From assembly GCF_003014555.1 (NCBI RefSeq), contig NZ_PYGE01000005.1, forward strand, positions 124,001 through 188,000: a stretch of 64,000 nucleotides of DNA. Reading direction: 5' to 3'. Shown here piece after piece: positions 15,309 through 58,655 of this stretch. Position 1 is the stretch's first letter. Each line of letters begins with the position of its first letter. The translations under genes and the position numbers were made by a program. The stretch is from Haloactinopolyspora alba. GTDB lineage: Bacteria > Actinomycetota > Actinomycetes > Jiangellales > Jiangellaceae. The notes beneath the pieces are model-generated. The model searched no databases, was not told where the DNA came from, and worked only from the letters and a program-made list of their open reading frames with translations.

Positions 15309-15385
15309 ATTGACCACGTTCACCATGGAATTCCCTGCGTCACCACCCCTGCATGCCTGGTGATGCGAGCGAAAGCCTCGTGATG
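15309..15385 (+). repeat. Dispersed repeat family B, copy 1
   Basis: Starts ATTGACCACGTTCACCATGG and ends CTCGTGATG. It contains a hairpin with arms GCGTCACCA and TGGTGATGC. It is clearly related to copies at 30482 (same strand) and 58575 (opposite strand). Confidence 0.8.
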
Positions 15386-29005: not shown

Positions 29006-30481
29006 ATGACCGATCTCGTTCTCGGCATCGACATCGGCACGGCGAGCAGCAAGGCCGTCCTGGCGTCCACGGACGGTGAGGTCGTCGCGGTCCACGTCGT
29101 CGAGCACGACGTGCAGCGGCCGCAGCCGGGCTGGGTCGAGCAGGACGCCGACGCGGTGTGGTGGGGCGACGTGTGCGCGCTGGCACGGCGGATGGTCGCG
29201 GAGGTCGACGCGTACCGGATTGGCGCGGTGTGCGTCAGCGGCATCGGCCCGACGGTGCTCGTCGGCGACGATGCCGGGCGGCCGCTGCGACCGGCGATCC
29301 TGTACGGCGTCGACACCCGCGCCGTCGGCGTGGCCGCCGAGCTCGAGGCCGAGCTGGGTGCGGACGAGGTGCTGCGGCGGTGCGGTTCGCGGCTGTCGTC
29401 GCAGTCGGCCGGCCCGAAGGTCGAGTGGGTCCGCCGGCACGAGCCGGAGGTGTGGCAGCGCACCCGCCACCTGTTCATGGCGAACAGCTACGTCGTCTAC
29501 CGGCTCACCGGCGCGTACGTTCTCGATCACCACTCGGCGAACCAGTGCCAGCCGATGTACGACCGTGCTCGCTGCGCGTGGATCCCGGAGTGGAGCGACC
29601 GGGTCGCGCCCGGGCTCGAGCTGCCGGAGCTGCGCTGGCCCGCCGAGGTCGCCGGGCACATCACGGCCGAGGCGGCCGAACAGACCGGGCTGCGTGCCGG
29701 AACCGCGGTGGCGGTCGGCACCATCGACGCGTGGGCCGAGGCCGAGAGCGTGGACGTGCGCCACCCCGGCGACGTCATGGTCATGTACGGCTCGACGATG
29801 TTCTTCATCGCGGTCACCAGCGAGCCGGTCGTGCACTCGCAGCTGTGGGGCACCGTCGGCCAGCACGCGGGACTGCACACGCTGGCCGGGGGGATGGCCA
29901 GCTCCGGCTCGATCACCGGGTGGTTCCGGCATCTGGTCGGCGACCGCCCGTACGAGGAGCTGGTGGCCGACGCGGGCGACGTCCGTGCCGGGGCGGACGG
30001 CCTGCTGGCGCTGCCGTACTTCGACGGCGAGCGCACGCCGTTCGCCGACCCGGACGCGCGGGGCGTCGTCGCCGGGCTGTCGCTGCGGCACGGCGCCGGG
30101 CACGTCTATCGCGCGTTGCTCGAGGCGACCGCGTTCGGCGTCCGGCACAACCTCGAGGCGTTCGGCGAGGCGGGGGTACCGGTGGAGCGGATCGTCGCGG
30201 TGGGCGGCGGAACGAAGGGCGACCTGTGGACCCGCATCGTCAGCAGCGCCGCGGGCATCGATCAGGAGGTGCCGCCGGTGACGGTGGGCGCGGCCTACGG
30301 CGACGCCAAGTTCGCCGCCGTCGCGGTCGGTGCGGCCGACCGCGACGACCGGTGGAGCCAGGGCGGCCATACGGTGCAGCCGGTCCCGGCGGAGTCCGAG
30401 GTCTACGACCGCCTGTACCCGATGTACCGGTCCCTGTACGAGCAGACCCGCGACATCCAGCACGCTCTCGCCGTGTCCTGA
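29006..30481 (+). CDS. FGGY-family carbohydrate kinase
   Basis: A 491-residue sugar kinase with the two actin-like lobes. Seen: the phosphate-1 motif LVLGIDIGTASSKAVLAS, GWVEQDADAVWWGDV, the substrate loop AILYGVDTRAVGVA, GTIDAWAEA, the FGGY hinge region ALPYFDGERTPFADPDARG and the adenosine loop VAVGGGTKGDLWTRIVSSAA. It phosphorylates a ketose, presumably the product of the upstream isomerase (fuculokinase, xylulokinase or ribulokinase type; undecided). AGGAGGG precedes the ATG. A 160-base gap separates it from the isomerase gene, and family B repeat copy 2 starts right after its stop. Confidence 0.9.
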   Translation: MTDLVLGIDIGTASSKAVLASTDGEVVAVHVVEHDVQRPQPGWVEQDADAVWWGDVCALARRMVAEVDAYRIGAVCVSGIGPTVLVGDDAGRPLRPAILYGVDTRAVGVAAELEAELGADEVLRRCGSRLSSQSAGPKVEWVRRHEPEVWQRTRHLFMANSYVVYRLTGAYVLDHHSANQCQPMYDRARCAWIPEWSDRVAPGLELPELRWPAEVAGHITAEAAEQTGLRAGTAVAVGTIDAWAEAESVDVRHPGDVMVMYGSTMFFIAVTSEPVVHSQLWGTVGQHAGLHTLAGGMASSGSITGWFRHLVGDRPYEELVADAGDVRAGADGLLALPYFDGERTPFADPDARGVVAGLSLRHGAGHVYRALLEATAFGVRHNLEAFGEAGVPVERIVAVGGGTKGDLWTRIVSSAAGIDQEVPPVTVGAAYGDAKFAAVAVGAADRDDRWSQGGHTVQPVPAESEVYDRLYPMYRSLYEQTRDIQHALAVS

Positions 30482-30557
30482 ATGATCACGTTCGCCATGG
30501 AATTCCATGCGTCACCACCCGTACAGCCCTGGTGACGCGTGCAATCGCCTGGTGATG
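30482..30557 (+). repeat. Dispersed repeat family B, copy 2
   Basis: A 76-bp element beginning ATGATCACGTTCGCCATGG and ending CCTGGTGATG. An internal hairpin has perfect 9-bp arms GCGTCACCA and TGGTGACGC. By eye it matches copy 3 (58575-58650, inverted) at about 68 of 76 positions with no gap. It fills most of the space between the convergent kinase and siderophore-reductase genes. Confidence 0.85.
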
Positions 30558-50430: not shown

Positions 50431-50489
50431 TCTCATGATCATCGGCACTTTCCGGGCTATGTGGCCGGAAAGTGCCGATGATCATGAGA
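50431..50489. terminator. 25-bp perfect hairpin, bidirectional terminator
   Basis: Arms 50431-50455 and 50465-50489 are exact reverse complements (left arm begins TCTCATGATCATCGGCACTT) around a 9-base loop. It sits between the transporter operon and the convergent dioxygenase gene. Confidence 0.8.
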
Positions 50490-58574: not shown

Positions 58575-58650
58575 CATCACCAGGACTGTGCACGCATCAC
58601 GAGGGCTGTACGGGTGGTGACGCATGGAATTCCATGGTGAACGTGGTCAT
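58575..58650 (-). repeat. Dispersed repeat family B, copy 3 (inverted)
   Basis: On the minus strand it reads ATGACCACGTTCACCATGG through to CCTGGTGATG, the same length as copy 2. It contains the 16-bp palindrome CCATGGAATTCCATGG. It fills the gap between the convergent YihY and carboxypeptidase genes. Confidence 0.85.
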
Positions 58651-58655
58651 TCCGG

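What the first reader, a model, noticed from the sequence alone, without database searches (positions are those of the whole stretch)
30482..30557. Repeat family B: 76-bp palindromic element in three intergenic sites
Copies at 15309-15385, 30482-30557 and 58575-58650 (inverted) share CACGTTC-RCC-ATGGAATTCC, then a hairpin GCGTCACCA / TGGTGAYGC whose changes in copy 1 keep pairing through G-U. Copies 2 and 3 have the same length and about 68 of 76 identical bases. This looks like a REP-type or MITE-like family specific to the lineage; two copies lie between convergent genes.
Basis: seen in the sequence. Interest (0 to 1): 0.6.

Follow-up and report, generated by a model that had tools for sequence, protein, structure and literature searches.

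The report
Repeated hairpin punctuating bacterial gene ends
The three 76-base repeats belong to a large family of hairpin-forming DNA elements, not described in any paper I found, that are scattered by the hundred through an actinobacterial family, sit in a fixed orientation at gene ends (often supplying the stop codon), and spread without the enzyme known to move similar repeats.

Summary
The window holds three 76-77 bp copies; the genome holds at least 147. In the same family (Jiangellaceae, judged from named Jiangella homologues) 18-19 of 22 genomes carry their own sequence variant, usually more than 100 copies each. Related elements occur in a few other Actinomycetes families.

Anatomy: an unpaired tag, RAATGAYCACGT, then one long hairpin whose arms covary across genomes. 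In about 80% of copies the tag end faces a gene's 3' end, mostly -5 to +26 bp from the stop codon. In about a third of those the tag supplies the stop codon.

Empty sites exist, including for the focal copy. Some gene ends share a copy across genera.

The repeats are landing pads for ISL3-like, IS30-like and IS110 insertion sequences. The IS110 carries a guide-like word that matches the tag and changes with it in relatives.

Most likely: a new REP-like superfamily, non-autonomous, mover unknown, tolerated or useful as gene-end punctuation. Mobility is inferred; termination or mRNA protection is untested.

The parts
30481..30557 (+). Focal copy (copy 2) of the tagged hairpin repeat, between convergent genes (carbohydrate kinase-like ORF ending at 30481; siderophore-interacting-protein-like ORF 31520-30573 on the minus strand). 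Gene functions are my reading of the translations.
   Evidence: empty orthologous site in sister genome G001 (L166:3838-3858)
30480..30491 (+). Unpaired tag (RAATGAYCACGT) of copy 2; its first A completes the stop codon TGA (30479-30481) of the upstream gene
30492..30555 (+). Hairpin of copy 2: outer stem 30492-30497 with 30550-30555, inner stem 30503-30520 with 30527-30544; palindromic core CATGGAATTCCATG lies in the 5' arm
   Evidence: folding; covariation across genomes
15309..15385 (+). Copy 1, between divergent genes (sigma-factor-like ORF on the minus strand; plus-strand ORF from 15750): one of the minority not placed at a gene 3' end
58575..58651 (-). Copy 3, between convergent genes; tag end next to the stop of a D-alanyl-D-alanine-carboxypeptidase-like gene (59918-58656, minus strand). 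Genome G010 (another genus) has an element at the end of its orthologue; sister G001 does not.
50436..50484 (.). 49-bp perfect palindrome TGATCATCGGCACTTTCCGG...CCGGAAAGTGCCGATGATCA: a sibling repeat with the same TGATCA ends (copies also at L029:89-137 and L083:544-592)

Best explanation
The element is a REP-like, non-autonomous palindromic repeat of a superfamily marked by the tag TGAYCACG(T) rather than GTAG or CGTC. Shown: one strand has a 12-nt unpaired conserved tag followed by a long, covarying hairpin; the element is dispersed in more than 100 copies per genome, always intergenic in my sample, with the tag pointing at a gene's 3' end, frequently supplying that gene's stop codon; copies differ in position between relatives yet some gene ends carry one in several genera; within-genome copies are more alike than copies at orthologous positions. 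Inferred: it spread by a trans-acting recombinase or single-strand/hairpin mechanism that is not a Y1 (RAYT) transposase, with repeated turnover or homogenisation within each genome. Copies persist where the tag falls at a gene end because there they are harmless or useful, as translational stop plus a transcript-ending or 3'-protecting hairpin. Secondarily, the repeats serve as safe landing sites for several insertion sequences, one an IS110 whose guide-like word is matched to the tag.
For: Copy number and spread. Structure: in 33 elements from 18 genomes 74.1% of pair cells are paired; 55 cells with double changes against 27.3 +/- 4.3 in shuffles (0/500 reach it), all slid controls lower. 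Placement: tag faces a gene 3' end in 54/67 (own genome), 31/40 (sister G001), 41/52 (G010); the tag supplies or completes the stop in 22/54, 12/31 and 8/41. Co-directional gaps 54 against 22, p=0.0003; nearby pairs 28 of 29 tag-outward. The same placement in other Actinomycetes families, 17 of 21. Empty sites for the focal copy and others in G001. Orthologous gene ends share an element more often than chance, odds ratios 7-11. Within-species identity 86%/80% against 76% for orthologous pairs and 73% for all cross-species pairs. No PF01797 in 22 genomes. Literature: REPs lie within about 20 bp of ORF 3' ends, and CGTC-tagged REPs lack a dedicated transposase (PMC3733652).
Against: No mobilising enzyme was found, no target duplication, and no pair of very close strains was available to catch a fresh insertion, so mobility rests on empty sites and patchy copy number. 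Shared positions across genera could mean vertical inheritance with gene conversion rather than active transposition. No expression data: a stop/terminator/mRNA role is inference, and one copy (L093) follows an existing strong hairpin.
Confidence: 0.72

Rival explanations
1. A functional cis element, chiefly a transcription terminator or 3'-UTR stabiliser kept by selection at particular genes and made uniform by gene conversion; not mobile DNA now.
For: Fixed orientation and short distance to stop codons; hairpin near -30 kcal/mol as RNA; sense-strand stops in all three frames in 76/44/27% of copies in three genomes against 8-16% in shuffles, no such excess on the reverse strand (copies are related, so not independent); shared gene ends across genera.
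Against: No U-tract follows the hairpin. A conserved 12-nt tag beyond the stem is not needed for termination. About half of the alignable sites are empty in the sister species. Copy number within one genus swings from 0 to at least 150.
Confidence: 0.2
2. A classical MITE, a deleted derivative of a DDE-type insertion sequence moved by its transposase.
For: Short, non-coding, repetitive, dispersed; fully symmetric forms with inverted ends exist (G000 L102; G010 L218, L232).
Against: No target-site duplication. Standard copies have unlike ends. No insertion sequence with the same ends or recurrent transposase beside copies. The ISL3-, IS30- and IS110-like elements found use it as a target and have unrelated ends.
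Confidence: 0.06
3. REP element mobilised by a RAYT (Y1 tyrosine) transposase.
For: Tag plus hairpin anatomy, copy number and 3'-end placement are as in REPs.
Against: PF01797 absent from all 22 family genomes, including 20 that are at least 90% complete, while the control genomes ring. No GTAG tag.
Confidence: 0.04

Closest known systems
GTAG-tagged REPs / RAYT system (REPINs)
   Same: Short tagged hairpins in over 100 intergenic copies, species-specific variants, next to ORF 3' ends, targets of insertion sequences (PMC3733652, PMC1525189, PMC3116915)
   Different: About twice as long; tag is RAATGAYCACGT; no Y1 transposase in any of 22 genomes
CGTC-tagged REPs
   Same: Tagged hairpin repeats for which no dedicated transposase is known, close to ORF 3' ends (PMC3733652)
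   Different: CGTC here is inside the stem in this species only, not the unpaired foot; tag and stem sequences differ; that survey's text does not mention Actinobacteria
Mycobacterial interspersed repetitive units (MIRU); from memory, a lead only
   Same: Repeats that overlap stop codons of flanking genes in an actinobacterium
   Different: MIRUs as I recall them are tandem-forming and not long hairpins; no sequence comparison was made
IS110-family elements with bridge RNA (IS621 in E. coli REPs)
   Same: IS 'D' carries PF01548 and PF02371 and inserts at a fixed place in the repeat; a word in its non-coding end matches the target and changes with it in relatives (PMC11208160)
   Different: This is a parasite of the repeat, not the repeat itself; a bridge RNA was not modelled

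Membership tests
REP (GTAG/RAYT) | Over 100 copies of an intergenic palindrome that folds into a hairpin | tested here: met
REP (GTAG/RAYT) | Unpaired GTAG tag at one foot of the hairpin | tested here: not met
   Tag is RAATGAYCACGT
REP (GTAG/RAYT) | Cognate Y1 tyrosine transposase (RAYT) in the genome | tested here: not met
   0 of 22 genomes, controls ring
REP (broad sense) | Placement next to ORF 3' ends; target of insertion sequences | tested here: met
   24, 29, 49
CGTC-tagged REP | Unpaired CGTC tag | tested here: not met
   CGTC is paired in the stem of G000 copies and absent at that place from most relatives
MITE | Target-site duplication | tested here: not met
   No offset or length gives a clear excess in 67 + 43 copies
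MITE | Ends shared with an autonomous insertion sequence in the genome | tested here: inconclusive
   None found next to copies, but short contigs C42-C49 read as N
Intrinsic terminator | GC-rich hairpin shortly after the stop codon | tested here: met
Intrinsic terminator | U-tract after the hairpin | tested here: not met
   Flank after the 3' end is C/G rich, T about 10%
Integron attC site | GTTRRRY core and array in a cassette platform | tested here: not met
   By inspection: GTTC in the tag, no GTTRRRY core; copies dispersed over contigs
Rfam RNA families | Match above gathering score | tested here: not met

The most novel reading that the evidence does not exclude
A self-spreading gene-end module: a hairpin element in Actinomycetes that inserts, or is retained, in a fixed orientation and reading phase at stop codons (the host gene ends ...RAA TGA inside the tag), replacing the gene's own end with stop plus hairpin, by a mechanism that senses gene ends and needs no known transposase.
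Probability: 0.22. Interest if true: 0.8.

Novelty: new variant of a known kind. Interest (0 to 1): 0.5.

Why it matters
It extends REP-like repeats to Actinomycetes with a new tag and no RAYT, so the open question of what moves transposase-less tagged REPs can be approached in a family where copy number ranges from none to at least 150 between related species. The fixed placement at stop codons offers a natural set of hundreds of altered gene ends for testing effects on termination and mRNA stability. It also gives an example of an IS110 element apparently re-targeted onto a host repeat.

Tried and rejected
RAYT/Y1 transposase: searched in own genus and 22 family genomes, none. Target-site duplication: scanned over offsets and lengths, none. 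Rfam: nothing. Plasmid and phage records: no match to the focal copy at blastn sensitivity. Recurrent transposase next to copies: clustering of 454 neighbouring proteins gave conserved housekeeping neighbours and a DUF559/AbiEi-like family (my reading of the sequence; probably chance or shared position), no transposase cluster. A first, mis-registered stem gave no covariation and was replaced by the register i+j=91. Autonomous parent in short contigs: C42-C49 read as N. Gene-flanking inverted pairs as a composite element: rejected, because the intervening genes are unrelated and the pairs fit each element belonging to its own outer gene. Literature searches on Jiangella repeats and TGATCA palindromes gave nothing relevant.

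Full report
OBSERVATION. The three copies are present as described. Seven near-matches to CCATGGAATTCC occur in the window against 1.5 expected by shuffling. Genome-wide, the 12-mer with one mismatch allowed occurs 106 (forward) and 99 (reverse) times against 2 and 1 for the reversed pattern; many are the same palindromic site read on both strands. Forty BLAST-scored copies have E below 1e-21. Covariance models R1 and R2 each accept 147 of 150 scored candidates, and 150 is a cap.

RELATIVES. The assembly is unnamed. The nearest named homologues of a window protein are Jiangella species at 60-64% identity, so the host is taken to be in or near Jiangellaceae. In the sister genome G001 the family has diverged: mean identity 73% between species against 86% and 80% within G000 and G001. 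R1 finds it in 18 of 22 family genomes and R2 in 19; counts range from 0 (G004, G012, G014) and 1 (G019) to the cap in many, with both extremes inside one genus. Outside the family, R1 hit one genome of 225 others. The structure-aware R2 hit seven of about 275, in three other families, with 7 to 46 matches each. Their sequences share TGAYCACGT plus a long hairpin. E-values of these models are rough.

ANATOMY. Each element has a 12-nt tag, RAATGAYCACGT, unpaired, then one imperfect hairpin: outer stem columns 14-19 with 72-77, inner stem 25-42 with 49-66, ending ...CCTGGTGATG. On 33 elements from 18 genomes 74.1% of cells pair. 55 cells have both sides changed with pairing kept, against 27.3 +/- 4.3 in shuffles (0 of 500 reach it), and every slid control is lower. 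Single-sequence folding is only modestly better than shuffles, so the case for structure rests on covariation. Symmetric forms exist: a 44-bp palindrome in G000 (L102) and full-length forms with the tag at both ends in G010 (L218, L232).

PLACEMENT. With a codon-model gene caller of my own, the tag side faces a gene 3' end in 54/67 copies in G000, 31/40 in G001 and 41/52 in G010; most lie -5 to +26 bp from the stop. The tag's own TGA is the stop in 17, 10 and 8 of these, and it completes a TGA in another 5 and 2 (G000, G001). The other side shows no such tight spacing. In co-directional gaps the natural orientation outnumbers the reverse 54 to 22 (p=0.0003). 28 of 29 neighbouring pairs have tags outward. 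The same holds in other Actinomycetes families: 17 of 21, four using the tag as stop. No copy lay inside a gene in the three genomes sampled. The sense strand carries stops in all three frames in 76%, 44% and 27% of copies against 16%, 11% and 8% in shuffles; copies share descent, so this is descriptive. Of genes that run into an element, nearly all end at the tag's TGA and none at the two later in-element TGAs (distances), which suggests selection for, or targeting of, that reading phase.

DYNAMICS. Synteny with G001 gives clear empty sites for the focal copy (L166:3838-3858) and for L016, L060, L059, L098 and others. It also gives shared sites (L030, L009, L025, L010, L089, L006, L066) where each species has its own sequence type. 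Reciprocal orthologues share an element at the 3' end more often than chance: G000-G001 5 both, 8 and 4 single, 68 neither (p=0.003); G000-G010 3/5/5/57 (p=0.04); G001-G010 3/3/12/115 (p=0.02). Copies at orthologous positions are only slightly more alike (76%) than random cross-species pairs (73%) and less alike than copies within a genome, which implies turnover or homogenisation. No target duplication was found.

WHAT MOVES IT. PF01797 (Y1_Tnp, which includes RAYTs) has no match in any of 22 genomes while control genomes ring. No transposase recurs beside copies. The mover is therefore unknown. Di Nocera et al. describe the same situation for CGTC-tagged REPs and the same 3'-end placement for REPs in general (PMC3733652).

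INSERTION SEQUENCES IN THE REPEAT. Many contigs end inside copies. Two ISL3-like ends (GGCTGTTGTGAC, GGCTCTTGTGACG) follow CCATGGAATTCC, and both sides are seen, giving GGAATTCC duplicated. An IS30-like end (GGCGGTGTCCATCGGTG) sits after CCT, duplicated; family names of these two are my reading of ends and a C-terminal fragment. An IS110-type element (relative's transposase hits PF01548 and PF02371) abuts GATCACGTTC. Its non-coding end contains GCAGATCACGTTCGAGTCACCC. In G015 the word and the target are GATCACGTT as well; in G004 and G011 both change to GATCATGGA. This is the pattern expected of an IS110 bridge RNA target guide (PMC11208160), though the RNA was not modelled. Use of REPs as IS targets is known (PMC1525189).

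WIDER SET. Other TGATCA-ended palindromes occur in these genomes: a 49-bp one at window 50436-50484, several types in G010, and a 57-bp TGATCATGGAGAAGG type with dozens of copies in G005, G008 and G011. The focal family is probably one branch of a TGATCA-tagged set.

LIMITS. Copy samples favour near-consensus copies. Gene calls are mine. The synteny sample is partial. No expression data exist here. Short contigs C42-C49 are withheld.

VERDICT. A real, abundant, structured, REP-like repeat superfamily with a new tag, oriented at gene ends, RAYT-independent as far as tested: a new variant of a known kind.

Noticed in passing
50436-50484: Perfect 49-bp palindrome with TGATCA ends, repeated elsewhere in the genome (L029:89-137, L083:544-592); sibling of the focal family.
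   Followed up: partly
L048:1-100, L003 and L029 ends; relatives L178, L179, L181: IS110-family element whose internal word near the end matches its target tag (GATCACGTT in G000 and G015, GATCATGGA in G004 and G011): looks like a bridge-RNA guide re-targeted onto local repeats.
   Followed up: partly
L044, L045, L088, L197 (ISL3-like A); L046, L082, L205 (ISL3-like B); L043, L047, L066, L081, L097, L199 and L080, L008, L202 (IS30-like): Insertion sequences inserted at fixed places inside the repeat; this breaks the assembly at many contig ends.
   Followed up: partly
L274-L281 (genomes G004, G005, G007, G008 and others): Second palindromic repeat family TGATCATGGAGAAGG-27-CCTTCTCCATGATCA, with dozens of copies in G005, G008 and G011.
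   Followed up: partly
L019, L136, L226 (hemH-like gene next to an inositol-monophosphatase-like gene); L025, L107, L265 (mshC-like gene): Gene ends that carry an element in several genera; good places to test inheritance against repeated insertion.
   Followed up: partly
L173:9400-10150 (G001): Tandem short repeats around GGTCGTGAAGATCGTCGTG in the gap where G000 has copy 3.
   Followed up: no
L098:1910-1993: Inverted dimer of the 3' half of the element without tags.
   Followed up: no
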